Origin: Lineus longissimus
Lineage: Eukaryota; Nemertea; Pilidiophora; Heteronemertea; Lineidae
Assembly (NCBI RefSeq): GCF_910592395.1
Contig: NC_088312.1
Span: 9,920,001 to 9,984,000 of the forward strand
Length of the DNA stretch: 64,000 nucleotides
Direction: 5' to 3'
In this document: positions 13,715 to 64,000 of the stretch, piece by piece
Layout of the letters: the number at the start of each line of letters is the position of its first letter
How positions within the stretch are numbered: the first letter of the stretch is position 1
Notes under the pieces: model-generated
What the model was told of the DNA's origin: nothing
What the model saw: the letters and a program-made list of their open reading frames with translations, nothing else
Database searches by the model: none
Position numbers and translations under genes: made by a program

Positions 13715-16700
13715 ATGGCCACCACTGGGCGTCTGCGGTCCATGGTAGAAGACGTCAAAGTCAAAGGGGAGCATTTCCAGTCAATCCTTCAGCACTACTC
13801 GGCTGAACTCATTGCCATATCTATTGCGACAGAGTCAATAGAAAATGTTTTGGAGGCTAAGAACTCGGAAATATGTCACCTCCAGGACACCCTGCGTGGA
13901 AAAAACAAGGCTTTGGCAGCATTGAAGCAACAGCAGAAAATGACAGAACTTATGTTCATCGACGAAAAAATTGATTTGAGAGCAAAGTTTGTTGAAGAGC
14001 AAAGGGGTTTACAGGCACAATTGTCTGCTGCACAGATGGAGAATCAGAACCTTAAGAGTGAATTGTCTGCTGCACTCGCGGTCGTAAATGCCCAGGACAG
14101 AACCCTTGGGACAGTCTTGCACGTTGTGAAAAGGGAAGATGTGCCGGAGGATGGTAAGCAAATTTCGCAGGTGAGTGTGTCAGTCATGTGTTTCGAAGTG
14201 CATATTTATAGGGAGACTGGAGGCAGCCATATGACTGTCTCCGAGTACATGTAGGTCAGTACTTATCTCACTTGTATGATGGCAGTTTTTTATCACTGAG
14301 ACCATATTTCTTTCACACTCACAGTCAAGAAAGTACATGTTTTTCCTCTTTTTATTACAGTGTTCCATTGTCCAATCATCACCACCTCCAGCCACCCAAA
14401 GCTGTAACACTTTGCCTGAATTCGTTGTGTTGAATGAAGAAGCCGGACAGAGACTTTCGGCCATGAAAAAAGAGCTGGGAAGTTCTGTTAGTCATCTGCA
14501 GATGACATCTGAAGATCTAAGTTCAGACCATCCTGGATGTAGCTCTGCTGCATTGACATCTGAGGAGAAAGTTGTCCTTACTGACCCAAGCAATAACATC
14601 TCGCGTAATGATGTTACCAACACCTCAGCTGTTGCACTGCCAAATACAATGACTGGCTCTTCTGATGCAAGTGACCCAGCCCTTCGAAACCAGCCTGTGA
14701 TGAAAACTGTGCCTGGCATGCCTGTTGTGATCCTACCTGTACCCTTACCAGTAAATGATGAGACAACCCAGCCACCTACTCAGTCACATGCGATATCGAA
14801 CATGTCCGAAATGGCCGTGCCTCATAAAAGTAATCTCAGAAATGTTTTCAGAACTCTGATTTCGGAATTAAATTCTTCAACCTCGGAAGATTTTGGCTTT
14901 GACCCTGAATCCAGTACTGATGGAGGCAGTGAAATCTCGAGCACACAACCTCAGACAAACAAATCAACGACAAGGCTGAGTTATGATCTAAAGACTTGTT
15001 CAGTTGTCCTGGAACGATGTGAAATCGATCCCTCTTGCGATGTGCAATCATTGAACGCCGACAGTCATTCCAATCAACCAGTTCCAGTTGTGTCAAGTGA
15101 AGAACAAGTTGGTTCGCATGATGAGGTCATTGATCCTAGTGAGTTTTCGAGTAGTGATCATCGTGAGGGAGGGACAGAGGATTTGGTAAATTCGGACACG
15201 GCTTACGGACCAGAATTTGATGATTCAGATCAATCTGACCCTTCTTGGCTGTCCCCTCCAACTCGCAACCCTGTACTATCGCATGGATGTGAACCTGCTA
15301 GAAAGACACAGCGACAAGGCCTATCAAAGCGAGCTCTTTCTGAGAGTCCATCGAAGAGACCATCAGTGAGCAAGAGAGCTCCCTCTGCTGCAGCTGGCTC
15401 GGCCGCCCAAGCCGAGAGGCAAAAGGTAAACCTGCGATAGGTAGCTTCAAAACTATCCAAATTATTCCAATCATTTTGAATTTCCTGGTGATATTTGATA
15501 ATGATTGAACATGGTATAAACTGTGCAGACAGTCGCAACACAGCTCTTGGTGAGTCTTGCATGGCTATTTGTATAGGAGCCAAGCAGCTGAATATCATGT
15601 ATTGTTAGAAGCAGCACTTTAAATTGCTATCGGTAGTTCACAAGCTTATCAATCAAGATCATATGTATTGTTAGTCGTCGGGCAGGAAGACTAGTATAGG
15701 ACTTGTGTTTGATTGATTAGCCCAAGTTGTAAATTAGCCTAAATTCATTATGATGACACCTCGTGATGTTAGTGCAGGTTGGGTTAGAAAACTATTGCAC
15801 ATGAATAAATCATTCATTCATTCATTCTGGTCTCATTTTGTTGGTAATATATATGTGATTGAGCCAAAAACTTCAGCCAAACACTTGATGTTGTACACAG
15901 TACAAAATGAGGTCCTGGATGTGTTTTAAGTATTTAACAGGATAGTTGTAGGATCAAAAAGTGATGCCTGCCTGCTGTTTGTTTATAGAAGGGATATGGA
16001 TCAAATGTAGAGGAAACTGCATTATTATGATAGCATCCTGCAACACCCAGAATGCGAAATATTGAATGATGTGTCTTTCTGGAGACTCGATGAATTAGCC
16101 AATAATCGAATTCAACTGAAAGATCGTCCCACTGAGGTAATGGATGATGATGGTCCCATGACATCCCTGTCTGCAGAAATAGAATCCAATCTCAGGTCCT
16201 ATGGTTGTCGGGTGAGGGGCCCATTGCACCAATGAACATTGCAAATGGAAACGTACGTGAGTGATCCTGAAGCTAACTACTTTCTTGATTTCACAAGTTA
16301 TCTGTGTTGTGTCTTTCCAGGAACTTGATGGATCTTTCAGTTATCAAATTGAGCAGGAAGATCGTCCCAGTGGGGTAATAAGAGATGATGGTACCATAAA
16401 CTTAGGAAGAGAGTCCAATCGCAGCACCTATGATTGTCAAAGATGTGGAAAGAACTTTTTACGGAGAGATCATTTCACTGTACACATGTTAACCCGCTGT
16501 GGCTGGTTTGAGAAAAAATTTGCAGGACAGAATGTCAAAACCAATACGTGTGAAAAACCTTTCGAATGTACAGTCTGTATGAAGCCTTTCCCATGCATGT
16601 TGAAGTTAATTGAACACATTAAAATTCACACTGATGAAGCTTTCAGATGTCAACACTGTAACAAGGCTTTTCCGCGCAAGTACCAATTGATAAATCATGT

Positions 16701-17040
16701 TAAAACTCATATGCCTACCAGGGAAAAACAACATACATGCCAAAGGTGTGTGAAGTCTTTCTGTACAAAGGCCAGCTTGATGGCGCATCTTCGAATCCAC
16801 ACTGGTGAAAAACCTCATCAATGTCCACACTGTGAGAAGGCCTTCTTTCAGGTAGGTAACTTGAGAGGGCATGTTAGAAGAATTCACACAGGTATAAAGT
16901 CTTTCACGTGTACTTTGTGCAAGAAGGGATTTTCCCATGAGCGTGATCTGAAGAGACATGTATTTGGAGTACACCGGGTGGAAAACCTTATAAATGTTCA
17001 CACTGTAAGAGAGAATTATCTGACAAAGGCAGCGTATTGA
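13715..17040 (+). CDS. Coiled-coil and C2H2 zinc-finger protein, four exons
   Basis: Exons 13715-14170, 14361-15425, 16011-16211 and 16321-17040, all phase 0, give 813 residues. The start ATG has A at -3 and G at +4 and lies just after a splice acceptor (TTTTTCAG at 13694), so a 5'UTR exon lies upstream. Exon 1 (152 aa) is largely coiled coil; exon 2 (355 aa) is acidic, Ser/Thr-rich and probably disordered, with a basic stretch near its end. Exon 4 carries six fingers: the first is C2HC-like, the next five are C-x2-C-x12-H-x3/4-H with a TGEKP-type linker between the fourth and fifth. Probably a nuclear DNA-binding protein. Exon 3 is inferred from splice sites, an open 67-codon frame and similarity to the start of exon 4. 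The stop at 17038-17040 follows a one-base frameshift near 16975 that cuts off further fingers. A candidate AATAAA is at 17863. Orthology is not recognised. Confidence 0.82.
15806..15828 (+). repeat. ATTC microsatellite
   Basis: AATAAATCATTC followed by three more ATTC units in intron 2 of the zinc-finger gene; could be the tail of a retroposon. Confidence 0.6.
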
Positions 17041-22200: not shown

Positions 22201-25200
22201 CAGTTTGGTGTCAATTTCTTAAACCAAATACAGAGAATGGAGACTTACAGATACTGGCCGCCCGAGTCCACCAAGTACACTTCTTCAGTGGTGATAGGTT
22301 TGTCAGAGTCATTATTAACCTGGTAATGAATGATGGCTGCATGCTCTCCCACGGCCGACACTGTCTCGAAGGACGCACCCATATTCAGTGGAAGACGTCT
22401 GGAAAAAGTAGCTGACAAAATAGAAGGATTTTAAATGGGAACGATGAGACTACTTCTCATCATGAACTCTTGATCAGAAGGTGTGTAATGCAAAAATGCA
22501 TAACAACCGCCAAGCATTTTCCTAATGCTCTTTCATATCGGAGTACATCTTCATTTTACAGTATATAATCTATTGGCTCCAAGTAGATTGTGACTAACTT
22601 GTAACATGCTATTATCACAATTACCGCCAGCGGAAGCGGAACCATTATAGTGTCTGTGAGTGTTTATGTGTGCCAGTGTTCTCTCCAAAAGAGCAGGCCC
22701 CAACTGGTTTTCGTTTGGTTAGTCGTCACGTTATTGGTGAAAAGGAATACCATAATGAAAACACTGAAATAGATTAAGTCTGAAGCTGTCATTTTGCTGG
22801 GATTTCGACAATACATGGTTTCGGAAAGTTGTTTCCACAAACAGGGTCTAACCTTCTGTATTTCAGTAATTCTTTGGCTGCCGTCATCTCCGTCCACGTA
22901 ATGCCAGATTTGACTTCCCTCTCCAACCGAGACATGAAGTCAACGAACGCCACTGCGTCCCTCAACTGCAACGCAAGGAGCGCGCTGTCAGTTGCGATGC
23001 ACAGGTGCAAGATTAATAGGGAATCGACGCCCGCAGGCCAGGCGGTGAAGCTGAACATGGCCCATGTAGTACATAAATACCGTATCGTGGTTGCTTGCGG
23101 AGGAAAACAATTCTTTCCAATGACTTACTTTTAAATGTAATGTCGTTACACGTATCTGTAATCACGACTTCTCTTAGAAGTGTCGTACATATATCTCACT
23201 CTCGAAGAGCAGGAGGGGTGATACTTTTGGCGAGAACGGTACTCACGTAGGCTTTTTTCATACCGGCCTGCTCCACTTCGTTCTTCACACATTTCATAAA
23301 TGACACAGGATTCAACTCCTCATGGACCTTTTGCTGTAATGTATAGCACCTTATGTATACATCTAATCACTGCTAAGTCATTCGTATTTGTCTTTTGTTT
23401 TGAAGAATCTAAAGGCTGCGTAGGCTATACATTCCGTAGTTGGATATTGAATTTCACCGAATGGATCACCAGTAATGACCACAGGTAATTACGAACGGCG
23501 TACTGGTGGTCCAGAAAAAGTAGTAATGCTGTTTCTTTTGTTTTGACGAATCTGTAGGCTTTTGTAGGCTACCTTCCGAAGTTGGATATTGAATTTCACC
23601 AAATGAATCTTCCGGTATATATACGCTGTTCGTAATTACAGATGGTCCAGAAAAATAGAAATTCAGTTGTACACAATGCCGTTATAAAGTGCCGTTATAA
23701 TGTATATGAACCTGCTGCAGAAACGATTTCAATTTTTTGACGAACGGATGTACTCATTATTGGACAGAGAGAGTTTTGCTATTAGTGTTGAAGCGGTTTC
23801 TAGTATCCGTTGTATTGGTAAGTGGAACAGTCTTGCTCTCACCTCGCCAATGGCCAGCATGATGCCCGCATTATTGACGGCGTCTATCCACACGAACTGC
23901 ACCTCGGGGTCAGTGGAGAGCCTCTTGACATCTTCCAGGAATGTTCCGTACTCCTCAACCTTAAAGGGAAAAGCATGGCGTGAGGTATATGTGGGTTTAA
24001 ATTCCAATAAATCAATGTCTTTGAGTCTTCAGAAAAGCGGCACAAGAGCGGGTTGAATTAGACCGGGTCTGACCGCTTACACTGATCTCGGTGAACCCCT
24101 TTTATCGCGAGCCCTAAGTTCCATGTTGTAGGGCGTATATCATAAGTGGACTTCTTCAGTGGCAGTTGCATACTTTAGATATATAGCACGTTGCACGAAA
24201 CTTAATGTAAAAATGACGCCATTTTCTCCAAAGATGAGGTAACACTGAATGCTGTGTTTCTAAACCTCGTTTTGCGCCATTTAATTATTCTGACTCCGCC
24301 GTAACGCACTTACGACATCCTCTTCGAGATTGCTCTGTGAGTGTGAATGATTGCGTTTACTAATTTGAACATTTTCAACTACCAGAATATAAACAATAGC
24401 TCTCCTAAAAGTCCTCTTTTTTGTCGCGGCCGACTCAAACCTGCCATCAGTGTGAAACACTTGGCCAATGGAATTAAATGTAAAATCCCTCAGATCGAAA
24501 TTTGACCTCTTACCAAGTAGCTTGATCACGAAATGAAAACACTCAATACCAACAAATTTACTCTGCAATTCAAACGCAAGCGAAAATGAAAGTGGTCGAA
24601 AAGCTGCAATGAACATCATTCCGTTGTGACTTAGCCTGCATATCCCAAGAAATCGCTTTTTTGGGGAAGGACACGCTAACTTTATTCGAGATTTTTCTCC
24701 CTCCGCTACGCTGAAACGGTAAACCAGTAGATTCATCTGCCTGGGTCTGCGCATTTGTTTAACCATTGCAAAGAAATTCTGCGACAGTAATACAAAAGCA
24801 TTTTTCGTCTGTGGCGTATGAGATACAAAATACACAGAACCATTAGTCAAATAAAAACAACGTTTCGTCTTATTTTTCAAGTCTACATGTAAATGTACAT
24901 CATATATGATCAGATTTAGACCAATTCCGGGCGTAGAACACGTAAAATATACCTTCATCTGTTTTTTAAAGACTTGTGCCATAACGCTTCGGGCTTTCTT
25001 CCGCCTATCTGAAGACCTACATATTCGCCATTGAGATTTTCCATTACCTTCCAACCTCCAATTGATGATGCGACCCGTTTTCGTATTAAAAGCGACTAAC
25101 TTGCTAAATTTGCCTATTATCGCTAAAATAAAAGGCGACGCTAAGGCCTGAATTGTGTAAATGTTTCGCAATGGAACGGTCGAGTTGTGGGACAATTTAA

Positions 25201-28200
25201 ATGAGCTCGTGAATTTGTCATAAGTATGTACTACTACTATAGCAACTGGACCATGATGACGAGTGTCTGATTCAGCAGCAGAAAGTGGACTAGTTTTTAT
25301 AGTTCTTTCTGAAGATACAATATGAGGCGGGCAATTATCATCGTAGAACACTAGACTCGGCCATTTCAATCGTATGGGAGGTACTATCTTCACTACACCC
25401 CCCACCCTGTATCGCAGGAATCTACTCTTCAAGAAGAAAAGGTAATTTATTATGGTTGCATAAATGATAAACTATTGAATAAGTTCCGTTTCAATTTTCT
25501 TGACGTCTCTACGATCTCCTTATGTGGAAGCCGGGGAAGAATGAAATGATCGATCAGGGCCGTAGCTAGCTTTTTGGTCGGGGGGGGGGGGGGGCGCACT
25601 GACACTTTTTGAAACTTTTCGGCCCAAATCACTTTTTCACATTTTTTATGTTCTTTAGGGGTACATTTGGCCCCTGTACCCCAGCTAGCTACACTCATGA
25701 TTTGGGAGTCAGGACGTTATAGTGCGAATTTAAGTGTTTCTGGGAAGTACAAACCTAAAACCTCTCGAACTACGATACATTGACAGTTATGTCACTTTAT
25801 CAACAGAACTCACATGTAAATTCACTGGTTGTTAAAGCTTATTTGTTGATGAATAATCAAAAAAAGCACCCCCCCCCGAACGTCAGAAGAATATTTGCAT
25901 TAATATCAAGGCTGATGTCGTCGGATAGTTATTAATTTGGACTAACTCTGGTTGCACCGACTTGGTTTCACTTTAAATGGTAATGCTGAATTCCTAGTTG
26001 GTGACCAGGGCCATGTGAATTCTCAAGGCTTGTGGTCGCATTCACAACTTGGTCTCACTCCACCATAACGAAAGAACGGACTCAAACGGTGTTGTGACTG
26101 CGATCGCCCTTGATTCGTCAAGACCACCAATTAACATGATATACATTACATACCTTTTTAATAAATTTTCGACATTTTCTGCTATATTTCATATGCAAAA
26201 TTCCTACACTGCTTGCCAATTCCCAGCTCAGTTCGCAATTTAAATTGGTATCTGAACTGCCCACAACAAACATTGTACACGAATTGTCCAAGACGCAGAA
26301 CAGAGCGCATTTTAAATCTGAAACCGCGAACAATGCCGTGTTTGCGTACAGAAAAGCATATCCAGTCATATGCAGTTTAAAGTTTGTGGTGGATCGAGAG
26401 TCATCTACATTATTAAGTAAAGTTTTCTGACAAGGCTTCCATTCTCTTCCTTGACCTTGCGTCATGGCGGCGTGAGGGTCAAGGTCAGCTATGAAAGCCG
26501 CTTCTTTCAAAGCTTTAGACTCCCGGGGTTGACTCCCAACTTCATGAACAGATATGATACGTTGCAAAGCTTGCCAATTTTCATTAAATTCGGACGACCG
26601 CGGCATTTCAATTCTAACTAAAACCAGGGCACATGTACACATTACTGCTTTGGGGTAATGTACAAATGCCCAAAGTTCAGTCGACGTATCAATACTCGCG
26701 TGGTCGTGCAATCTGGTCGTCCTGACAAAGGGCTTACTGTATGTAGCGCAATATTACGCTACAATATTCGAATTTCACCCCTTTCCCCCCAAAATGTGGC
26801 CTTTCCCGGATATAATGAATATGGCATTGATTGTGACAAACTCAGCTCCTGTCGACACTGAAAGAATGTTCGTGTGGTACTGAACTCCGTTAGTTTCAAA
26901 GATAAAAAAAGTGCAAAACATTCTTTTTCTTTTTCGAAATTACATGTATCATGAAATCGACGTCGAAGAGTGCTATTAACGCCACACTCAAGCATTCCCC
27001 AACACTCGATGGACTATTTGAAAACGATCACTAAACACAATTATAACAAACCATCCGATTAACGGCGAATGGACGAATTCGATATTGATCTACGTATTAA
27101 GGAGCGGGTCACTTGATTTTTCGAATAAATCCTCCCTAAATAAAAACAAATGAATCCTGAATAAAGTGCAGTAGTCAGCAATCGAAACTTGGAGCATTGT
27201 GTCAGTGTAGTTCTCAAAATCAGTCATCGAAACTCTATCGTACAGAAAAAATGAGACTGTTTCATAACCCGAGGCGATTTTAACACACGGTGAATTGGCT
27301 TTGTCATGTTTGGAAAACTCGCGGACTTCAATACAATTATTCTCACAACATTTAATCGTGTTTTATTTTACTTGCATTGTCTAAAAAGACATCTACGCTA
27401 TATGTGTATTGGTCGATATTGATAGACTGACTTTGCCATCACAGTCAAATGATGAACCTCTGGGATGAATTTTAACAACCAAGTGCGAGAGAACATCTAC
27501 TTTGATTTCAAAGTGAAACTTTCGCTCTCTGACACAATTTGAAAACGTCAGTGAAAGAAGGCGGACATGGGCCATTTTTGTGAAAACAATGAATTAACAT
27601 AGATTAAAACAAAGTTTGTAACATTCTCCTGATATGATGGTAGTACCATAAAGGGTGACATGGCCAATAGGCCAATAAACCAGTGAACTTTGCTGTCCTG
27701 ACGCATTTTCCTTTAGCCACAGTATGGTTTCTCGCATATTCTCTCGAAATGAAAAAGGCCACTTTTAATGACCACCTTGCACAAGCATACTCTGTTACTC
27801 ACCGAGACGCAGTATGTTGACTTTGGGTCTTTACATTTTCCGTCATCGCTCAGGTTCAGATGTTTGACAACATCGTCTGTCAGCTTGTATACCCGGTTTT
27901 TGATGTAAAGTCTGAAAAAGGATTGGAAACAGAGTGATTTGCGGCGACACATGAAAATGAACTGTAAAAATTGCGGTTGTTGGACGATAAACTTAGCTTA
28001 CCTTATTCTTTCCAGTTCAATGATGGCAAACGATAGGAATGTTGGGCTGTATTCATAGTCGTAGCCTCGAAGGTTGAACAACCCTTCAAATAAAAAAGGT
28101 TGATTGGGGTGGGCTTAATGGTTCCGAATCCTACTCAACCTGCAACTTCAGCCAACTCTTCAATCGCGTACGTACTGACCATGGCGATGTGGTGGGTGTC

Positions 28201-35312: not shown

Positions 35313-37663
35313 TCATCTCAGTTCATGCCATTGCGCGATGGCTTTCCTTGGTGAGTGTAACATTTCGATCCAGTGATTATAGCCCGATCCTTGAGCAACC
35401 TGCCCCAGACAACACGTCCCCACAACCTTCTCCCCGATCTCCTTAAACTGTCCCTGCGTGGATTTGTGCAGCACACTCACAATGAAACCAACTTTGTCAA
35501 GATATTCCAAGGGTACGTCGAATATTACAGTCTCGTTAAATGACGGATCTCGCGTGGTTTCCTTTGATTTGGTTCTCTTCTTCATTAGTGTGTCTTTACC
35601 TTGCAGCATTACTGCCTTTACGAATACTAAAGCGTCTGGAATGGAATAAAAGATGATGCCGTCAACAAAGGTATGAAAGGTACATCATCTACAATGAGCA
35701 CTGGGGTTGGTGCAATGGACGCGTGGGTACTTCGAAAACCATTGTCTTAGCGCATTCCTGCATAAATGGAGAGATAACCTCACGTGAGAAAAGGGTATCA
35801 GTCTCAGACTGAATGTCGAATAGCTGATACCACAAGAAGAACAATAACAGATAACTTACCCGGGTCCTCCCTCAGATTCAGGTCTCTACATTTGATTATG
35901 CCCATGTGCACCTTGCCTGAGGTTGGCAAATAACTCATTGACAGCATCACTTCCCCGTTTGCTTCCTGGAAAGGAACACAAAGAAAAGGTCAAGGTCGAT
36001 GGTGAAACGATGAGAAAGAGAAGTCTTCCGTTTGTTTCATATTGATTGGGGTGATTTTAAACATATACCGATAATGCAAAATAACCAATTCCCACCACAT
36101 CTAGGATGGTCTATTGCACTTTGGATTAGACAGGCGCCAAAATTACTCCTGCTTCAGACCTGTTTCTGTCTCCATTGAATTGTTAATGGTGATTCTTACC
36201 TGTTTAGGTTGTTTCATCGCCTCCTCAAATGCCATCACTTCCGCCAAATGATGCTCCTGAAGCAAGACCTGCAACTCCCCCTTCCATTCATGCCGTGAGT
36301 ATTTATCAAATTCAAAAGACATTAATTTCACAATAACATCGTTCGATTTCTCACTCGGGAAATGAAACACGAAGTCCTCATCGAACAGCGTGTCTATTTG
36401 TCGCTGATGTACGTTTGACTGCTGTACATCCAAAACATCCCCTGGCAGCTTTGGCTTCCGTGTATTTCGGGCGAGAATTTGCACCTTGGCGTAAATATAG
36501 GAAACGCCCCCGTATAACCTGGGTTGTAAGTCCCGTATAGACTTTAAAGATACGAATAATACATTTTCTTTCGCCTGTTTGTCCTCTGCGAGGTTCAAAG
36601 TGAAAAGGGCGGTGCCGCAGGTCCGTGGTGTTTGGCTGTCGTTGTCGGCCGATTCATTCTGTTCCATTCGAAGCATGCTGTCGTATGCTCGGTACAGCGA
36701 GGGGTTCAGCGCTTCTTGTTCCGAGTAGACGTCCTGAAAGGAAATAAAAGGGAATTGTTACAAAGTGTTACTATGTATGTAAACTGTACCCGCGTATCCC
36801 TGTATTGCGATATCAGTGAATCAGCGCCGACCTGCGTTTTCTGGCCTGTTTCATACTCCTAGGGGTCTCTCTTAGCTTATACATATATCGCTGAATCAAA
36901 TAAGTCACCTGCGAAGACCAGCAATTCGATCTCCTTGTTCCTGCCTAGTCATAAACTTCTAAACATCATCTTACCCCGCTACGGTTTATTCTTCTTCAGT
37001 TACGACAGCATTAAAAAAAAGAATGTACGGAACTCACCAACTGATCCTGAAGTGTGGGCACCTTTTCACCCCCATGCTGTACATGTTTGAGTTGTGATGT
37101 CCAGAAGAAACTCGGGGTGATGTGGGACAGGCTCATCTTGGGCTGTTTTGATTTGACTGTGGCAATAAAGCATACAGTCATGTTGTGTACGATTTTAAAC
37201 CGGCAAAGCAATTATTTAAAGGCTAAAGGTAGATGGAAATTTGATGTATAGGTTACGGATGATGGAACTGTAGAGCAAACGCTTCTTCATCTGTGTTCAA
37301 AAGTGATACATCTTAAAAAAATTCTCGCACCATGCACCTACATAGTCCCATCGCATCAGTCTGTAACTGGAAGCCAAAATCACGGAAACGAAATTCAAGA
37401 TGGCTGCCGTAGTGGCCATTACTGGAAATTTCCATAATCGTACTAGACGTGCTACAACGCATACAGTGGAAAAGCACTCGTTCACAGAATATGTATGTTC
37501 ACTTACGCCTTTTCTCTTCACTCTTTCCACATGGGCACCACGGGTAGCAGAGGCAATGGCGGCTGAGGGTGCACACCATGATCAAGATGACCAAGGCGAA
37601 AAACAGCATCAGCACGAAGCCCCCCAGCAGGATGTCTGCTTTCGTTACTATGGTATCAAGCAT
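35313..37663 (-). CDS. Synaptotagmin-family protein, Ca2+-independent type
   Basis: Coding exons 37666-37507 (ATG at 37663), 37156-37038, 36733-36200, 35965-35860 and 35635-35313 join in frame to 412 residues, the usual synaptotagmin size. The N-terminus is short and lumenal, followed by one transmembrane helix (about residues 11-30) and a Cys-rich stretch (CLCYPWCPC) likely to be palmitoylated. A C2A-like region lies in the third exon and C2B in the last two; C2B begins with the family pattern LSMSYLPTSGKV and ends with HW-x2-M-x3-PR-x2-IA-x-WH-x-L. The Asp residues that bind calcium in the C2B loops of classical synaptotagmins are mostly absent (the second loop reads LHKSTQGQFKEIGEKV), so calcium binding is unlikely. 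Subfamily is not settled; vertebrate Syt13-like members share the C-terminal motif. A 5'UTR exon with upstream ATGs lies at 38006-37909. Confidence 0.85.
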
Positions 37664-48720: not shown

Positions 48721-49014
48721 GATTAGTCACTGTAGAAGTGAAAAAGTCCCGAAAAAACTCTGCTTCTGCAAATGTTCTGTCACTTGGAATTTGATCAGAA
48801 TAATAGTTGGCGAATTCGAGGAAATGAGTCTCATGATCATTTCCGAAGATTTGGTCTTCTGTAAAAGTACATGATTTGCAAAAATCTTCTTTTGGATTTA
48901 CGAGAATGAAGAATTCTGGTTCCTCTACTGCTCTAAGAAACGCGGAGATGACGTCCAAATGAACGTTTCTCATCAGGAATTATCGTCTGTTCTACACTTG
49001 AATTCGAACTCGAA

Positions 49015-52000
49015 ATGGATGTCGTTCAGCGCGTTATAGTAATCATTGCAGCTTTGACGTTTCCTAGTGTCACGCCGTATCTTTTGGATCCACAGATGCT
49101 CGATTATATAAAGGATTTCCCCAATAGGTTCACATTCAAAGATGGCGACCTTCTTATTGCTGGATTGTTTTCCGTTCATACATACAGCGGAACGGAAATG
49201 TGTGGGGCAGATGTGTTCGAACCTGCGGTCTACCATGCTGCGAGCATGATGTACGCCATCGACGCTATAAACACTGATCCAACAATATTACCCAATATTA
49301 CACTCGGGTATGTTATCTTTGACGAATGCAGACAAGACACCAACGCCATGCTACGCATGCTCCATATATTCCCGGACAAACCACCCTCATACCAATACAC
49401 GGGCGTAGCAGCAAATGTCTCCTTTCCAACCTTTGATGTTGTTGGTGTCGTCGGTCCGGCGACCAGCTCTTCCGCTTATCTCGTGAACCGTTTGTTGGGA
49501 GCCATTCGGATGCCCGTCATCAGCTACTACGCGACCGCAGACAGCCTGAGCGACAAGTCCGTCTACCCGTATTTCTTGCGGACCATTCCGCCCGATGTCC
49601 AGCAGGTCCAAACAATGGTGGAGCTACTTAGATACTTTAGCTGGACGTACGTCTCCGCCATCTACCAAGGAACATTCGGGAAAGAAACGGTCCAGCATGT
49701 TGAAACTCGTGCCAGTATGTTTGGCATTTGTCTTGCTATTAAGGAAGAAATTTCGAAGACAACGACATCCTCAGAATATGACGCATTAATCACAAAATTA
49801 CGCCAAAGTCGTGCGCGTGTTGTTTTAATGTACGCCAGTGTTGTTGAGAGCAGGAAATTCCTTCATTCGTTCATGCGTTTGAAGGCGTATAAGGACCTGA
49901 TAGTGATTGCTTCCGATGGTATGGGAGGCCCAACTATCAGGACTCGGGAGGTTGTGGACGACCTACCCGTGGGGCTGATGGTGACAGACCCGTTCATGCA
50001 TGGCATCGAAGACTTTGACAACTATTTTAGTAATATAACGATGACTGAAGCAGAAGACAATGTCATATTTCGCGACTTCTGGGAGTTGAAATTTGGGTGT
50101 TCGTTTGCCAACGGCACGTGTTCGTCCAAGTACCCGAGTAGTCAGACTTTCACGCCAGCGTATGGCTTCCGCTCTGATGTGTCTGTTTCTTTGGTAACGG
50201 ACGCCGTTTATGCTTATGCGCATGCAATAGCAAACGTGACTTCAACGAAATGCCCTGCTACAACAGGGAAGGCTCTTCGAACGTGCTTCTTTGGTAGCGA
50301 CCTGTTAGAGCACTTGAAAAACTTGCGTTTTGTTACTGCGAACCACACAGTAGGTTTTGATGAAAACGGCGACATAATGGGGAAATACCAAGTTATGGTT
50401 TTGAGGAACGATTCTGGAATAAACATGGCGGTACCAATGGCAATGTTGAATATATCAAATGAAACTTTCGAAGTGATCACTAAATTCATCCAGTGGCACC
50501 CGGAATTTAGTCACTTCGACAACGAAACCGGCGTTCCTAAGTCGGTTTGCTCTGATCCATGCGATCCGGGACATTACCGCTACTTCACTGATGACGCATG
50601 TTGTTGGGAGTGTCACAGGTGCCGCACCAATGAGATAACCGCACCAGACTTATCCCGTTGTGTTGAGTGCCCAGACCAACAGTGGCCAAACGATACGTTT
50701 TCTAACTGTCGCCCCATCCCCCATACGTTCGTTGAATGGCAGAGTGCATCCAGCATAGCATTCGCCATCCTTGCCGGCATAGGTTTTCTCCTATGCATTT
50801 TCTCAACTGTAGTCTTTGTCAAATGTAGTGACAACAGACTTATCAAAGCGTCAAGCGTGGAGCTCATGTATGTGATTATCTCCGGAATGTGTCTGAGCCT
50901 TGTGACGGTCTTTTTCTGCCTTGCCATTCCAACATACGAAACGTGTTTGATAAGTTACTTCGGGTTCATTCACTCATTCACATTAACATTTGCGCCATTG
51001 CTGACGAAAACGAGGCGGATCTACGTCATCTTTGATGCGGGAACCAAGACAACCAAAGAACCTCCTTTCATTAGTAAGATCTCTCAACTTGTGATCAGCT
51101 TTTGTATAGTGTTTGTTCAGGTAAGTGAATTTGATTGCTCATTTTTATATTTAAGTACCCGATAGCAACTTGTCATTATCATACATCTTGTATTGGTGGA
51201 AGCTACTTTCCAAACTGTAAACGATACTTCGTCTGGGGGAGGCCTCATTTATTCTGTTGGTATGGCTCGATGGAAATGACATACTGAGAAATTAGCTTCT
51301 CTGGTCCTGCACGTATCATAAGGGAAATTCATTATTTGCATGTTTGCAAGTCATAGGAGATTACCGTCATTCGACTTTCCACACTATAATGTTTTATTAC
51401 AAGTATTAGTTGATCAAAGTGGTAAATGTCACTGAAAAAGGGATCTGCAACCACACAAAATAAGATGGGAATTAGGTATTGCCGTGCTATCAACTAAGAA
51501 GTCAGACGTTTGCTGTACAGTTAGCTTAATGTGGACATCTTAGTGATGACAAATGGTCCTGTCGGGACAGATGATCTAATAAGATGGGAATTAGGTATTG
51601 CCGTGCTATCAACTAAGAAGTCAGACGTTTTCTGTACAATTAGGTTAATGTGGACATCTTGGTGATGACAAATGGTCCTGTCGGGACAGATGATCTATTT
51701 TTCGCCTAATTGAAAAGACGATATTTGTGAAGGACAAACATCGGTTCACTTGTCCAGTATTTCACTCTCGGTGACTACACACCCGAAGCATTTTCTTGAA
51801 AGCATTTCCTTGTCGATGGTGGCTCTGGCTTCCAATGATGAATATTGACCCAAGTCTCTGGTACCGGACCGGGTAAAGCTTTTTAGCCTCATTCGTAACA
51901 GCAAACATCTTTCTTTCAGGTGGTCATTGGTGTCGTGACGTCATTCGTCTTTCCCATCGGCCCTGTATCCGAGATGCCTGACAAAATGGAGATGTACGTA

Positions 52001-52411
52001 GAACTAGGTTGCCAGCTTCCAACCACAGGACTTCTGATTGCGCTTGCCTACAACGTCCTACTGGTACTGGTGTGTACATACTTTGCCTTCAAAGTGAGGA
52101 AGGTCCCGGACAATTTCAATGAAAGCAAATTCATCGGTTTCAATGTTTACACAACTCTCATACTCTTCATGGCATTTATCCCAACCTATTTGACCTCAGC
52201 GAGTTTGATTCAGAAATCACTTTTTCTCATCTTGTGCCTCTTGGTGAATACTTATGTCATGTTAACGTGTTTGTTTTTGCCGAAATTGTATGCAGTCGGA
52301 TTCATTGATGTCAAGAATTTGAAACTCTCCAATCAGATCAAAGATACTTTGGACCGTAAGAAGAAGGTAGACATCAGCGGATTGGCTGGCGTCAGTGGGA
52401 CCAAAGCTTGA
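49015..52411 (+). CDS. Metabotropic glutamate-like class C GPCR
   Basis: Two exons, 49015-51120 and 51920-52411, phase 0 at a GT-AG intron, 865 residues. The ATG is in good context (G at -3 and +4). Order: signal peptide (1-20), Venus-flytrap ligand domain (about 35-500), nine-Cys region starting CSDPCDPG (about 505-565), seven transmembrane helices from about 580, and a short tail of about 45 residues. It resembles mGluR family members in the ligand domain: Ser-Ser-Ser 151-153, Ala-Thr 173-174, Asp194 and the SDG motif near 304 match glutamate-contact positions. The Tyr that stacks on ligand in mGluR1 appears to be Phe221, and the distal Lys is not evident, so the agonist may not be glutamate. 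Vertebrate GRM genes are cut into many exons; here the entire extracellular part and four helices are one exon. AATAAA at 52478. Confidence 0.92.
51459..51696 (+). repeat. 119-base tandem duplication in GPCR intron
   Basis: Two head-to-tail copies, 51459-51577 and 51578-51696, differing at about five positions. Both contain ATGGTCCTGTCGGGACAGAT. Confidence 0.92.
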
Positions 52412-53509: not shown

Positions 53510-55579
<2,070 letters not shown>

Positions 55580-57134: not shown

Positions 57135-60100
57135 ATGTCGCCTGGTCCTGGACTTCTAGTCAAGTCCACCATTGAGGTCCCTACACCAAATGGGCACTAC
57201 AAGATTCAGCTCCTTGTTGGAGATATCACAGCTTTACCACTTCAAGACAAAGTGGACATTATCATGGTGTCTGCTTTCCCAGGTAGATTGTCTTGTGTTT
57301 TAGATTTGATGAAAATGATGACAGCAAAGAATCACAACATGGCCGAACACATCAAGTACATGTACTACTGGTATGTCCCAAATTCTGAATGTAACATAGG
57401 CAGTCAGAGAATGTCCGAATTAAAGACATTTTGAAAACAAGGGAGAATGTATAGACTAATTAGAGCTTTTTTAGGCTATTTTGCCTCGTATTTCTATGCA
57501 CATTGTCTTCTCCAGGTGACAATCAAGCACTGTAATTTTCTTTCTGTATTTTAAGGTGACTATTCCCCAACACCAACCTCGCTGATTGGAGCACTTATGA
57601 GGAACCTGAACATTAGGGTTCGTGACCTTGCTAAGAACAAGATGGAGGATTTGAGACGCAACTTCCATTGCTGGTTGTCCCACGACCTCCCTCCGTCACT
57701 ACCCTACAGGTAATATTTTCCTCCAAATTTGGTATCTGTGAACAACAGAAGGGAGTTACGTTTTCATGGTGAGGTGAAAGATCTGGCAGAGAAGCTTAAA
57801 TGCAGTCTGTCCTCCCATAAATGGAATTCCGTTTCGCAGCACCTCCCACTCAAAAGTTTGATTGACATAAACCAGAGCAAGCTAGCCAAACACAATTTCA
57901 GATTTTACCATCTCTTGAAAAGATAGGAAGCCTTGAAATCTTATCATTGGAACTGAAACTAAGTTGGCAGTGGCCCTGAATGGGATTGAATGGAATTCAA
58001 GTAATAATGTTCTCTCTTTTTCAAATTGCAGAAGATTGCTGTGTTTCGAGAAGGCATTCACAGAGATTTCTCATCCAGCGGCACTTGTTGGCGATGTGTT
58101 CAGGGCGTTAGTGCCCACCTTTAAGAATGACGAGAGTACTGTCATCACCCCAATCTTAGCCTCTGGAGATCAGGTGAGAATTCTAACACACCTCGATTGA
58201 AGCATATCATTGATTTGTATGTATTTTAGTACACAGTGCCTCGTTTTTTGGCAGCAGTCAGATTTTTTCTAAGCTATATATCAACAATGTGATCGAATTG
58301 CACTTTCTATGTTTGATTCGATGCATTAAAGCCATGGTCATAGACAGTTTTCAGTATGTTTGAGCCATTTGTTAAATTCATTAAATTTACGGTGTGATAG
58401 AACCAAAATTAACACCGCACTATTTGGTCTCTTAATGTGTTCTATTACAGAATTTTGACATGAAGACCATGTTGAAAGCCATGGTGAATGCTGCAGGCCA
58501 CTGGATGCAGGCTGGTCTCCCTCTCGAATGCCTCAAAATAGTCATCTACTCTCCCAACCCTCAGAATGCTAAAACCGATCCAACTCTGCTGCAGCAGTTT
58601 GAGAAACTCAAGAAAAAATGGGAAGCAAGCAAGTCGGCTTTGAAAGTGAGTAAAAATGTAGACCTTGGCCGAAGAGGGATCATTGGACCCTGACTAGGAT
58701 CAGCAGTGTGACACACAAGTGTCACCAGTGATATATGGCTGGGATTGAGAAGAAGGAAAGGATTTTTCATGTTGTTTCAATTGTTTAATTACATTGTTGT
58801 TAATGCCTGTAGTTGGCGATGAAATCCTGGCAGTGAAACTTAGTTTTTTCTCAAGGTTTGCTTCTCACCAGATCGTTTTACGTGTCATTTGGAAAACGTA
58901 TAACTGATAGGTGGTTTGCTCAGTTTCAATCATTCTTCGTAATGCAGGACATCTCAGAGATCAAGTACGACGTCTACCTGTCGTACAGCATCCAAGATAT
59001 GGGCTATGTCAAGAAGATTGAGGAGCAACTGAAGAAACAGAAGGATGATATTCGTATCTTCTCTGAGAAACAGCAGTTGAACTTGGAGTCTGCCTGGCAG
59101 GAAAACATTTACCAGGTCATGGTCACTTGTGTTAGGTGAGTGTTGAGGCAATGGGTGATATGAATAAAGTCTAGTAAATGCTTTTACTTCAATTTTGTAC
59201 AGAAAGGCTATAGTGTAATTGGACATGGAGTTTTAGATAAAAGCATTTGCTAGTCTTTATTCATATCACCCAATGATATTTCATATAAAGACATTAAACT
59301 AAACCTCAGTTGATGCCCAACCATGGTGGCACATGACAAAAATCCATAAGGACTAAAGAAGAAGTGTATTTTTGAGACACTACAGTTTTTTAAGGTAATG
59401 TGCTGTCAAAGTACATGTACTTGCATTTCATGTTTCCTTTTCAGAGTCGTGACGATCCTGAGTCCTCATTATCTTGAGTCCAGTGAATGTTTAGAGCAGT
59501 ACAATATTGCCCTGTGCTGTAATAGACTGACAAAACGGGATATCCTAGCACCTTTCTATGTGGTACAAGTCCCTCAGCTTCCCACCTACATGCAGCTCAT
59601 GCAGTACATTTGCTTCAGGTAGGTCCAATAATCGAGTTTTTGGGGTCCGAAAGGTGTCTTTGACCAAGTGTTATTTTTATTCTTATTCCTTCCACCTACA
59701 CTTGATTTTTGGCACATCTGCCAACGGCTTCAATGTAATAACTGGTGTAGCATAAAGAATTTTAAAACTATTGACATTTTTATCATCACAGATGGTGTGT
59801 GTCTTGGTAGCCCTTTGGAGTGAAATGATCCTACCAACATTTTTAGATTAGTAGAAGCCTTTTGAATTACTTGTCTGTATTCAGATAAAAGTCAACTATA
59901 GGCCTTTGTTTTTTACAACCATCAAACACTGTCATTTCAATAAATGATTCTATTTTGATTTTTCCAGAACAAGGACAATTGTCGTTGACGGGTAAGTAAA
60001 TAATAATTTACTATTTTTCCAAAGTATTTCCAGCCGCAATCTTGTGCAAGACAAAAAAAACTTGGCCTACATCTTTCTGCCTCAAGTTGCAAAACCTCAT

Positions 60101-63100
60101 GTCATTTACTAAACCATCTGGCAGACAAAATACCAGTAGTTTGGAAAGTTGGAACAATGTTGTTGTTGTTGTTGTTGTTGCAATTTCCTCTTTTCTGTCA
60201 GTCCCCTTACCTGGTTGTGACTTTGTCTTATGCTTCACAGAAGGACCCCTATTGATTGTGTCAACCTTTTGGGAGTGACTTGACAATTCACTGCCATTTC
60301 CCATTAAGTGCCCTCAGCTTCGTTTGGATGGACGAAAAAGAGGATGGACGAAAAAGAGGTGTGGATTCTACAGCCTGAGGCCATTTTTTGTCTTTCAGAC
60401 ATGACAGTAAGAACACGAAGATTGTGCTTTATAACATGATCAAACTCTGTCTCCACTGACTGCAGTGGTATAGCAACATAACTTCTTAAATTCCAGTGAC
60501 TCTTCTATCCTCAGTGTGACCAGAGAAGAGAAATTTGAAGAAAAGCTAAAAGGATCATGCAAGAAGTTCATCAAGCTTCTCACTCACGACCAGGCCCTCG
60601 AACATCGTGTATCAGACACTTTCGTAGCATATGACGTGTTCATATCTTATGCTCACAAGAATGTCAAGAAGGCAGAGAACTTCCTTAATTTGCTGACTCG
60701 ACTCAATCCACATTTAAAGATTTTCTTTGACACGAAGGAGCTCCGAACAGGTAAGGTTCCTTGAAATTCTCATACCCAGCGGAGAACAAGTTTGTCCTGA
60801 TCTCATCTGTTAAGTAAAAACTATAGGGCCTTAATCTCAGTTACGTCTGTAAATAGTCAATGTTTGAGTTACTGACAGATGTGGTCAGATTTTGACACTT
60901 GAAGTAGAGCTACTAGAGGGTGCTATAAAGTTATAAAGTTAGAGGAAAAGAATAGACAGAAAATGAATATCGTTCTCTATGCTGAATTGAGATTGTACTA
61001 TTAACTTGGATTGCCGCTCTTCCAGGCAGCTCTTGGCAGCAGTCTTTGTACTCGGCAATGGATGGCAGCAAAGTAGTGATAGCACTCCTCTCGTCTCACT
61101 ACCTCTCATCACAAGTCTGTGGCGAGGAATACAACCTGGCACTAATTCAGCACATGACACAGGTAAGGTTTTCAGTTTTGAGAAAGCCGTTTTACCTGAA
61201 CCTTTTTGCTTGCAATCGTCACTGTATCAACGATCGATATCCAACATCAATTTCCAGTAGTCGTGTTGCCGTGAGAAAATCCTCATGTCTCCCTACATTT
61301 ACTTAGAAAGGATGATTCCCCATGTTATATCCTTGAATAAATAGAGATCAATGAATTAGGATATGTTTTCAATGTTAGGGGTGAAAATGACTCCGCAAAT
61401 CCCAGATTTACCATTGGGGCAAACGTATGGATAACGGATGCCCCCAGAATTCTACTCAGGATGAACTTGCAGCAGATAACTGATGGCAATCACTTGAGTT
61501 TACTTACAGAGCTACGTGGAGTGGTTTTCCTTTGTTTGGCAATCTGTGAAAATTTGTAATTTGTCTTAGCTTTTTCACCATTGCCCAATGGACGAGATGC
61601 ATCAATTTTCCCTTTCTTGCTTCAGAGAACTGAAATCATACCAGTGTTGATTGAAGAAGTTGACAAGATGCCACGATCGTTTACATTTGTTCCTATCATC
61701 AGTGGCGTGGAGAAGTTTGACAACGTGGCTAATAAAGTCTGCCAATCCATTGATGCGTACTTCCAGTTCAAGAAGAAACTAGAGGTGTTCTCACCTGCAG
61801 AGGTAGGGTATCCTTTTTCTTTGTTTCATGTTGTGTCTGTGACACAGTCATATGAATCCCCTGATGTTCCGATTATGATTCCAAGGTAAGACTCTTTGGA
61901 GGTAGGTTAAAAATGGCTTAGAAAAGATTCTCAAAACGTTACCCTGTTTTCGCGACTCAATTAAGCTTTTCGATTTTCCAGGAAATAGTCGACGTTGATG
62001 AAATCTTGGAGCAGCACCGACAGGAGTTTTTTGGGAAGCATTTTAAGATAACCCACAACAAAATCGAGAAAACCAAACCGACTTGTCCACAACGCATAAA
62101 ACTGCCAAGTAAAAGTATGGAGGAGTGTATCAACGACCCATTGGACTTAAATGTTGGACATGATGTTGTATTCTCATTTGTGCAAAGTGACAAAAAATTT
62201 GCACAGTTCATGAGCCGATATCTGCTTAGGAGGAACCCGGATTTGAACATTAGCATTGAATCAGAATCTGAACAGAAAAAAATGATAGAGCTTGATGCCG
62301 CTCGTCTTGTTGTTGCATTGATATCGCCGCAATATCTCCGCAGTCCTCAAGGTCGTGACGAGTTTCATGTGTCGTTGTGCAAACACCGCGTAACCAAAGG
62401 CAAGTCAGTGTTGTATTCAGTGCAGGTGTCGGGACTTTTACCCAAACCATCATTCCCGCTCCTGATTCCATGCAATGTCTCCTGTAATGATTACTTTTGG
62501 AAGACGATTCAGTTCTGTGGTGAAATGGGCACGAACAGTCATCCATCGTTACCGAAGAGTCAAGCACTATGGGAAGTCATCAAAGATTCCACGTTCAGCG
62601 GGGCAACGATGTGGACGCAGGACATGATGGCAGCGGGTGACGAGATCAACCTTCAGCTGAAGCATGCACTGGCACTGACGGTCGCCTGTGAAGACATTTT
62701 GGATGTGCTCAATGCTGAGAGGTAAGCCGACATCTTCCCCCTCTGTAAAGGAGGTTGTGTCTCACTGGATACTAATGTGTCCCTCTTATCAAGTATTTCT
62801 GAGGAATTTTAGAAGAATCGGTGATCACCGCGACATGCAATCAATATCAAATCCGGTGATTACCGCATTTACGGACGACGAGAGATCTTTCTGCTGCCCA
62901 TAGCAGCGATTTAAGTTGCAGCGCTTTTGAATCACTCATTTGTGTGGCGCTTTAGCAGAGCCTAAGGCATCTTTAAATATAACACAATATACAGCTTCAC
63001 AAATCAAAGTCTGTCCTCTTGGCGTCCTTCAGCACGGGTTACTCACGAAATGAAATCATCACCAACATCATGAATCTGAAGAACGGATACCTGACCGATG

Positions 63101-64000
63101 ATGTTGTTCCATTTGAACCATCAGTAAGTACTCAATGGATATTCAGAGAATATGTCCGTGTCTTTTCATGATGTGTCTGAAACTTACAAAGCTTCTCGTA
63201 TCTCATCGGGTTATAACGACACTACCTTGGCAGTTGTTGCCTGAGTCAGAATAAAGGGTTGGGCAGACGACTTTTGTCGGATATGAAATTCTAGGAAGTG
63301 TTATTCCAGAAGGCTCTTCACATTGTTTGGTTGACGTGAAAAACTGCAATATCGTGTGTTCGAGTGTCTAAGTTTATGTTTCCTGCAGGGGTTGAGGCTG
63401 GTATAAACCCCAAACTTTGAAATTTTGGCTATATATGGAAGGTGTGTTTTGTTATTGGGGCTAACTGGAAATTTTTGAAAAGACCACACTGTTGGCGTCA
63501 AAGTGTGTATTGTTTGAGCATGAGACTAATCATTCCTCTTTTCTTGCAGTTTTTGAAGGAGATCACTGTGCCAGATCTTCTACCACCAGAGGAGGAAGAG
63601 GATAATGCAGAACCATTAATTGAGACTTTAGACACCCCACCGGAACACACACCACATCAGGAGCAGCCTATGATCAAAACTCGCGTTGGCTCTTCCATTC
63701 CAGATCTAAAGGAGTCCCTTGTTGAGCCAAGGAATGAGAGTGAAAGAATGTCCAAGGCTGGTGATTTAATGAGCGAAGCATCGACACTAACGACAGAGAA
63801 ACCATCCGAGACGTCAGTGTTGAGTTCCACAGACAGTGATGAGGTCTCCTTTGCAACGAGCAATACTCAAGGCAGCTCCAAGTTTAAAATTGAGGGAGAT
63901 TTGATAACAGTCACTCATTTGCATTATGAGCCGTCAGGAAAAACTGAGGAGGCACCTAAGGAGACCCTGAAGACGGATGCCGAGGACAGAAAAAACTATG
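57135..64000 (+). CDS. Macro-like domain plus three TIR domains, 5' part of a multi-exon gene
   Basis: Exons 57135-57282, 57556-57709, 58032-58173, 58451-58645, 58948-59135, 59445-59618, 59968-59991, 60497-60750, 61026-61162, 61626-61802, 61982-62721, 63033-63123 and 63550 onward; all phases fit, giving 958 residues before the window ends. The ATG is the first in frame after TGA at 57099. Residues 1-213 look like a macro domain (LLVGDIT, VDIIMVSA, then VITPILASGDQNF and a LKIVIYSPN strand), with the usual NAAN motif lost. TIR1 spans about 219-340 (YDVYLSYS, LSPHYLES), TIR2 about 384-520 (YDVFISYAHK, FFDTKEL, LLSSHYL), and a divergent TIR3 about 590-725 (HDVVFSFVQSDKKF, ALISPQYLRS). The rest is acidic, Ser/Thr-rich and probably disordered. 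TIR2 has Trp430-Gln-Gln where catalytic TIRs have Glu; TIR1 has Trp263-Gln-Glu. No transmembrane segment seen, so likely cytosolic, in immune or NAD-related signalling by inference. Confidence 0.9.
59153..59271. mobile_element. Short hairpin MITE, copy 2
   Basis: 119 bases, same arms and loop as the copy at 10165-10282 with only a few differences, placed in intron 5 of the TIR gene, 17 bases after the donor. Flanks read AAT on both sides. Confidence 0.85.
60158..60180 (+). repeat. GTT microsatellite
   Basis: About seven TGT/GTT units in intron 7 of the TIR gene. Confidence 0.8.

What the first reader, a model, noticed from the sequence alone, without database searches (positions are those of the whole stretch)
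57135..64000. Animal gene joining a macro-like domain to three TIR domains
Seen: 13 in-frame exons encode a macro-like N-terminus (GDIT motif, terminal LKIVIYSPN strand), two clear TIR domains and a third divergent one, then an acidic tail. Known: macro domains bind ADP-ribose and its derivatives, and many TIR domains cleave NAD or make cyclic ADP-ribose signals; in bacteria the two functions meet in defence systems. Inference: this protein may both sense and respond to NAD-derived nucleotides. Being spliced across many introns, it is a settled host gene and not recent bacterial DNA.
Basis: partly seen in the sequence, partly recalled or inferred. Interest (0 to 1): 0.88.

Follow-up and report, generated by a model that had tools for sequence, protein, structure and literature searches.

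The report
Animal macro-TIR protein with bacterial kin
This invertebrate gene joins a hidden ADP-ribose-type "macro" domain to three TIR immune domains and probably a lipid anchor; its closest non-animal relatives are prokaryotic proteins of the same macro-TIR design, so it looks like an ancient bacterial sensor-enzyme that animals took over and rebuilt.

Summary

New here: (1) the same macro+TIR pair, with one TIR, is a stand-alone protein in prokaryotes, 34-51% identical to the window's macro part; 25 animal-size macrodomains (Cnidaria, Echinodermata, Lophotrochozoa) form one clade, 100/99. (2) In 29 animal-size chains TIR1 has lost the catalytic Glu in 28, while TIR2 keeps it in all 29. (3) 17 of 29, the window's included (CSVL, about 158 bases beyond the window), end in a plausible CaaX box, predicting prenylation.

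Best reading: a membrane-anchored, single-chain NAD-nucleotide sensor/NADase, working like a fused Thoeris macro-TIR pair. Biochemistry is untested.

The parts
57135..58645 (+). Exons 1-4 (57135-57282, 57556-57709, 58032-58173, 58451-58645): N-terminal macrodomain, aa 1-213
   Evidence: Splice borders and phases; identical to P0175; no Pfam match; macro fold of two homologue models; weak PDB profile hits only to macrodomain chains
57216..57230 (+). VGDIT motif (Gly29-Asp30 of the chain); the Asp is the likely adenine contact
   Evidence: Sequence; G29 in 25 of 25 animal-size and 61 of 61 prokaryote-size rows, Asp30 in 17 of 25 and 59 of 61
58948..60524 (+). Exons 5-7 and the first bases of exon 8: TIR1, aa 214 to about 345 (58948-59135, 59445-59618, 59968-59991, 60515-60524)
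   Evidence: TIR_2 4.5e-15
59497..59499 (+). Gln294 of TIR1 at the place of the catalytic Glu
   Evidence: Position counted; Q 20, K 3, M 3, L 2, E 1 in 29 animal-size chains
60624..61769 (+). Parts of exons 8-10: TIR2, aa about 379-514
   Evidence: TIR_2 1.8e-20; the homologous region of P0001 fits SPARTA and plant TIR structures
61127..61129 (+). Glu455 of TIR2, predicted catalytic residue
   Evidence: Position counted; Glu in 29 of 29 animal-size chains; aligned with the C-x-x-E Glu of plant TIRs
62156..62509 (+). Part of exon 11: TIR3, aa about 584-701, divergent
   Evidence: TIR_2 2.7e-5, below curated cut-off; TIR3 of 14 chains is one clade 100/99
63033..64000 (+). Exons 12-13: acidic, Ser/Thr-rich tail; exon 13 runs on about 158 bases past the window and ends ...GRSQSCSVL-stop (CaaX-type box)
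   Evidence: P0175; genome match C5:9983529-9984158 covers aa 796-1005; stop after CSVL read in L032

Best explanation
The gene encodes a membrane-anchored sensor/effector of NAD-derived nucleotides. The N-terminal macrodomain (fold shown on homologues) would bind an ADP-ribose-type nucleotide or ADP-ribosylated target (inferred). TIR2 is the enzyme that cleaves NAD+ (inferred from the conserved Glu). TIR1, whose Glu is lost, and the decayed TIR3 act in cis as scaffold partners that help the TIRs stack (inferred). A C-terminal CaaX box lets the chain be prenylated and clustered on membranes (inferred from recurrence). Ligand binding to the macrodomain would switch TIR stacking and so NAD+ cleavage, with the product able to feed back on the macrodomain. 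The animal gene descends from a prokaryotic one-piece macro-TIR protein acquired before the cnidarian-bilaterian split; TIR duplication, inactivation of TIR1 and the CaaX tail came later (direction inferred).
For: Macro fold. Same macro+TIR order in prokaryotes: 20 of 22 loci have one uninterrupted chain, its TIR part read by eye; macro part 34-51% identical to the window's in the hits without an animal name and under 450 aa. 29 of 180 macro positions examined have the same dominant residue at >=85% in both 25 animal-size and 61 prokaryote-size rows, which suggests one retained ligand site. Animal clade 100/99 among 81 rows. Catalytic Glu: TIR1 1 of 29, TIR2 29 of 29, TIR3 24 of 29, and 129 of 137 chains of 300-599 aa by a motif search. 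Family TIRs are separated from 8 other TIRs of the same genome with 100/100. Plausible CaaX end in 17 of 29 animal-size chains, against 3 of 137 with Cys at -4 among chains of 300-599 aa. Thoeris precedent that a macrodomain reads a TIR product and oligomerises, clustering transmembrane domains: PMC11204291 (abstract, section 7 and passages).
Against: No biochemical or expression data. The presumed adenine-contact Asp is Ser in 8 of 25 animal-size rows, and Phe/Tyr stands where ThsA macrodomains have Asn (N114; my alignment, by eye), so the ligand may not be ADP-ribose. Tubulanus TIR1 keeps Glu. Adjacent genes in prokaryotes are mostly metabolic, transport or mobile genes; none is shared by more than two of 22 loci, so a defence role there has no context support. 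12 of 29 animal-size models lack a convincing CaaX end, among them named ones (Owenia, Rhopilema, Montipora, Strongylocentrotus); P0003 is labelled partial and P0162 runs into another gene, the rest were not checked. The root of the macro tree is unknown.
Confidence: 0.55

Rival explanations
1. A non-enzymatic TIR adaptor: all three TIRs only scaffold TLR/IL-1-type or other signalling complexes, and the macrodomain recruits the chain to ADP-ribosylated proteins, as in PARP9/PARP14.
For: Two of three TIRs have lost or doubtful catalytic residues; best macro matches are PARP9/14 and macroH2A macrodomains, the macroH2A-like group (PARP14, macroH2A1.1) being described as binders without catalytic activity in PMC11204291; MyD88/MAL TIR filaments are among the TIR matches.
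Against: TIR2 keeps the catalytic Glu in 29 of 29 animal-size chains, and the family's TIRs do not group with 8 other TIRs of the same genome.
Confidence: 0.25
2. The macrodomain is an enzyme (a hydrolase of an ADP-ribose derivative or of a TIR product) that ends the signal made by the TIR, not a sensor.
For: Strict conservation of polar and aromatic residues (S46, Y52, D81, R83, W89, E107, Q148) between animal-size and prokaryote-size rows, as for an active site.
Against: The Asn/Gly-rich first loop of MacroD-type hydrolases (recalled; N30, G37 and D40 are the mutated residues of the O. iheyensis macrodomain named in PDB titles) is replaced by SAFPGDY-PT-TSLIGAL; no other catalytic set was recognised.
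Confidence: 0.15
3. Vertical inheritance or animal-to-bacteria transfer rather than bacteria-to-animal transfer.
For: Root not inferred; animal macrodomains are a single long-stemmed clade (0.79 changes per column), which also fits a very old split.
Confidence: 0.12
4. Gene-model artefact: the macro-like exons belong to another gene.
For: None found.
Against: Same order in orthologues named from six phyla, in P0175 and as one uninterrupted ORF in 20 of 22 prokaryotic loci.
Confidence: 0.01

Closest known systems
Thoeris systems with TM-macro ThsA and TIR ThsB (PMC11204291)
   Same: TIR enzyme plus nucleotide-reading macrodomain coupled to a membrane; the paper's closest fold relatives of ThsA macro (OiMacroD, PARP14 macro 2, macroH2A1.1, AF1521) are also among the matches here
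   Different: Separate ThsA and ThsB proteins and a transmembrane part there; here one chain, one or three TIRs, no neighbour gene shared by more than two loci, and a CaaX-type tail in animals. Asn N114 of ThsA is Phe/Tyr here (aligned by eye)
SARM1 (animal TIR NADase; bacterial descent of its TIR per PMC13142454 section 5)
   Same: Animal TIR protein thought to come from bacteria, NAD+ cleavage predicted here
   Different: SARM1 has ARM and SAM domains (recalled), not a macrodomain
PARP9/PARP14/PARP15 and macroH2A macrodomains
   Different: 9-18% identity in those rows; first loop differs; their chains are not TIR proteins (recalled)
ecTIR-DC families of invertebrates (Gerdol et al. 2017, not held; mentioned in passages of PMC6321704, PMC5549309, PMC6836662)
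   Same: Invertebrate TIR proteins said to be absent from vertebrates; this protein may already be catalogued there by its TIRs
   Different: No passage seen mentions a macrodomain

Membership tests
Macrodomain | Macro alpha/beta/alpha fold over the whole domain | tested here: met
Pfam macro models (recognition by curated profile) | Curated profile match; the fold does not depend on it | tested here: not met
   No family at E<=1 for aa 1-213; 0 of 11 family members match a macro model at E<=10; PDB profile hits E 0.6-1.4
Macrodomain | ADP-ribose binding | not testable with these tools
   Indirect only: GD Asp in 17 of 25 animal-size and 59 of 61 prokaryote-size rows; loop-2 Gly in 86 of 86
MacroD-type hydrolase | Asn and Gly-rich first loop (recalled) | tested here: not met
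   SAF/SAY...SLIGAL in its place; Phe/Tyr at the Asn place in 86 of 86 by alignment by eye
TIR NADase | TIR domain with catalytic Glu | tested here: met
   TIR2: TIR_2 1.8e-20, Glu 29 of 29, plant alignment. TIR1 of the window lacks the Glu
TIR NADase | NAD+ cleavage | not testable with these tools
Thoeris | Separate ThsA effector and ThsB TIR proteins | tested here: not met
   One gene in the animal; one ORF in 20 of 22 prokaryotic loci, no neighbour shared by more than two loci
Thoeris | Match to a described defence-system profile over the whole chain (PADLOC) | tested here: not met
   For P0175, P0031 and P0019 only the TIR part matches (for P0175 best PDC-S66 7.5e-17, aa 350-473; ThsB 1.2e-5); P0041 has no match
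TLR/MyD88-type TIR proteins | TIR groups with TLR-type TIRs | tested here: inconclusive
   8 other TIRs of the genome stand apart from 57 family TIRs, 100/100, but their type was not determined
Prenylated (CaaX) proteins | C-terminal Cys-a-a-X | tested here: met
   CSVL then stop; 17 of 29 animal-size chains plausible
Prenylated (CaaX) proteins | Isoprenoid attached in cells | not testable with these tools

The most novel reading that the evidence does not exclude
An animal 'Thoeris on one chain': a prenyl-anchored protein in which TIR2 makes an ADP-ribose-type nucleotide that its own or a neighbour's macrodomain reads on the same membrane, giving a self-amplifying NAD-based alarm. It was taken as a ready-made macro-TIR fusion from prokaryotes before Cnidaria and Bilateria split, kept in cnidarians, molluscs, annelids, nemerteans, brachiopods and echinoderms, and lost in the groups where no hit was seen, such as vertebrates and arthropods.
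Probability: 0.3. Interest if true: 0.9.

Novelty: new variant of a known kind. Interest (0 to 1): 0.74.

Why it matters
It would be a direct animal counterpart of bacterial NAD-nucleotide immunity in which sensor and enzyme stay fused, present in tractable animals (Nematostella, sea urchin, oyster). It gives a macrodomain class that Pfam misses, a clear division of labour between a dead and a live TIR, and a testable membrane anchor, and it may add a case of prokaryotic immune-type gene transfer beside SARM1.

Tried and rejected
Pfam, NCBIfam and PADLOC gave no name to the N-terminal part. Viral-contig, plasmid and phage searches with the macro part found nothing. A sample of one phylum found it in 1 of 398 genomes, the centre genome itself, so it is rare there. 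Neighbours: of 247 ORFs called in 22 loci, family members included, 17 clusters were shared, each by two loci, 10 of the 17 between same-genus genomes; 20 adjacent ORFs from 13 of the 22 loci were scanned, 16 have a Pfam family, including two transposases and one patatin-like phospholipase, a type also used by defence systems (recalled), and no TIR-system partner was recognised. 7 of the 120 proteins listed (of 167 found) have no Pfam TIR; 3 of them end inside the start of the TIR, 4 in or just after the macro part, so truncated copies and true macro-only proteins are both possible. A first script for the TIR tree failed, and the next read five own-genome TIRs on the wrong strand; it is replaced. 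VIA rows for the animal model do not cover TIR3, so TIR3 was tested by profile only. A planned comparison with canonical macrodomains (PF01661) never ran (tool busy).

Literature: searches listed no paper that I recognised as describing a macro-TIR fusion in animals or bacteria; only their listings were seen except for the papers named next. Gerdol et al. 2017 and the Yirmiya et al. 2025 preprint on bacterial TIR systems were not read (no search listed either; they were seen only as references), so prior cataloguing is possible. Seen: PMC8195603 (passages), PMC13142454 (outline, section 5, passages), PMC6321704, PMC5549309, PMC6836662, PMC12700824 (passages), PMC11204291 (outline, section 7, passages).
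Full report
What is there. The finding describes a real gene. Thirteen exons with GT-AG borders and fitting phases run from 57135 to the end of the window and translate without a stop into 952 residues. A protein search returned P0175, 1005 aa, listed without source or name as the tool does for proteins the window encodes, and its first 952 residues are the same. The genome holding the window has 391 Mb in 30 contigs; the window is C5:9920001-9984000, and the 12 exon-level matches of P0175 are all at this place (17 candidates scored). The last exon ends about 158 bases beyond the window with ...GRSQSCSVL and a stop.

Its pocket. Of 180 positions examined (aa 4-183), 29 have the same dominant residue at 85% or more in both 25 animal-size and 61 prokaryote-size rows. 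They include G29, S46, A47, Y52, W89, F106, E107 and the loop-2 Gly146 (each 86 of 86) and Q148 (79 of 86). By one search's alignments the A-S/A-G-D-Q loop corresponds to GTGN of PARP14, and VGD to the GD of PARP14. Against a standard ADP-ribose site: Asp30 is Ser in 8 of 25 animal-size rows, and Phe/Tyr stands (by eye) where ThsA macrodomains have Asn (N114; the general motif is recalled). So a conserved ligand is likely; that it is ADP-ribose itself is not shown.

The TIRs. Alone, TIR1, TIR2 and TIR3 score 4.5e-15, 1.8e-20 and 2.7e-5 with TIR_2, the last below the cut-off. The C-x-x-E position is shared with plant TIRs; that this Glu is catalytic is recalled, and PDB 7s2z is titled an E100A mutant of RUN1 bound to NAD. 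There, TIR1 has Q 20, K 3, M 3, L 2 and E 1 (Tubulanus) in 29 animal-size chains, TIR2 has E in 29 of 29, and TIR3 has E in 24 of 29 by alignment, with some rows uncertain. A motif search finds E in 129 of 137 chains of 300-599 aa; these are prokaryotic or unnamed metagenomic proteins except P0011, a sea urchin fragment. The animal protein therefore pairs a catalytically dead TIR, an apparently live one and a decayed one. Each of the three is one clade over the 14 chains used (99/94, 100/100, 100/99), which include cnidarians, echinoderms and molluscs, so the triplet is old; TIR1 and TIR3 group at 95/80. The eight best-scoring other TIRs of the genome (of 14 matches; type not determined) stand apart at 100/100.

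Relatives. One search gave 44 proteins: named animals are Owenia, Tubulanus, Lingula, Rhopilema, Montipora, several molluscs and Lytechinus; named prokaryotes are a Gemmatimonadetes and a Myxococcales MAG. (19 proteins) added Nematostella, Diadema, Patiria and Strongylocentrotus. In genome contigs, 22 loci were found, in records named as Pseudomonadota of several kinds, Bacteroidota, Cyanobacteria, Gemmatimonadetes, Pirellulaceae and the archaeon Methanocrinis (many are MAGs). 20 of 22 are intact macro + one TIR proteins, L006 is frame-broken and L022 a fragment. The genome behind L011 (Aquimarina aggregata) has two copies. A sample of one phylum gave 1 of 398, the centre genome itself.

Descent. 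In the macro tree, 25 animal-size rows are one side of a branch, 100/99, against 56 prokaryote-size rows (SH-aLRT 99 in the quick tree of 86 rows). The nearest rows are P0133 (90/92) and a Roseobacter/Accumulibacter set (71/42), in a tree drawn from an arbitrary root, so no donor can be named. The prokaryotic spread, the simpler architecture and the lack of other named eukaryotes favour prokaryote-to-animal transfer before the cnidarian-bilaterian split; vertical descent is not excluded.

The tail. 18 of 29 chains of 600 aa or more end in Cys-x-x-x; one (P0006, CTTG) is not CaaX-like, leaving 17, of which 10 belong to the 17 chains with an animal name or the window's own. They occur in Cnidaria (CSLF in Nematostella; CCIQ and CCIH in unnamed chains that group with Rhopilema), Echinodermata (CSVV, CHLI, CVCL), Mollusca (CNIL, CQIL, CILL, CTVL), Nemertea (CSLL) and the window (CSVL). 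In the 137 chains of 300-599 aa, 3 have Cys there. Some of the 17 are close relatives. Named chains without it are Owenia, Lingula (labelled partial), Rhopilema, Montipora, Potamilus, one Lytechinus and Strongylocentrotus. A prenylation signal carried by the animal branch, with losses or faulty gene ends, is the simplest reading.

How it most likely works. Thoeris TM-macro systems show that a macrodomain can read a TIR-made nucleotide and oligomerise, clustering transmembrane domains (PMC11204291: abstract, section 7 and passages). The animal chain carries all three elements: macrodomain, one live TIR with scaffold partners, and a lipid tail in place of a transmembrane part. I propose ligand-gated TIR assembly on a membrane and NAD+ cleavage. 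Shown: fold (on homologues), order, residue patterns, distribution. Inferred: ligand, enzyme activity, membrane site, immune role. In prokaryotes no neighbour is shared by more than two of 22 loci, and the 20 adjacent proteins scanned are mostly metabolic, transport or mobile genes, so the unit looks self-contained and a defence role there is unproved.

Novelty. Macrodomains, TIR NADases and their pairing in Thoeris are known; the fused three-TIR animal form with prokaryotic one-TIR kin and a macrodomain invisible to Pfam did not appear in the searches listed under Tried and rejected. The TIR atlas PMC13142454 notes uncharacterised TIR clades in molluscs and cnidarians, but the passages and section seen do not mention a macrodomain. 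Two works not read (Gerdol 2017, Yirmiya 2025) may list the animal or bacterial proteins.

Noticed in passing
window 48952-52411 (+): Class C GPCR exons: ANF_receptor, NCD3G and two 7tm_3 pieces in two open frames.
   Followed up: partly
window 54428-55579 (+): Tubulin exon (Tubulin and Tubulin_C), alpha-type by my reading, just upstream of the macro-TIR gene on the same strand.
   Followed up: partly
window 16261-17040 (+): C2H2 zinc-finger array exon.
   Followed up: no
window 36143-36757 (-): C2-domain exon.
   Followed up: no
window 24281-25471 (-): 396-aa stop-to-stop open frame without Pfam match; may be chance or an unrecognised exon.
   Followed up: no
P0162 (eukprot protein): A gene model that joins the macro-TIR protein to PF02812/PF00208, the glutamate dehydrogenase domains (domain names recalled); probably two neighbouring genes merged by prediction.
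   Followed up: no
L014 7965-9578: The Primorskyibacter flagellatus version (537 aa) has a long hydrophobic stretch between macro and TIR, by eye like transmembrane helices: perhaps a bacterial form with its own membrane anchor.
   Followed up: no
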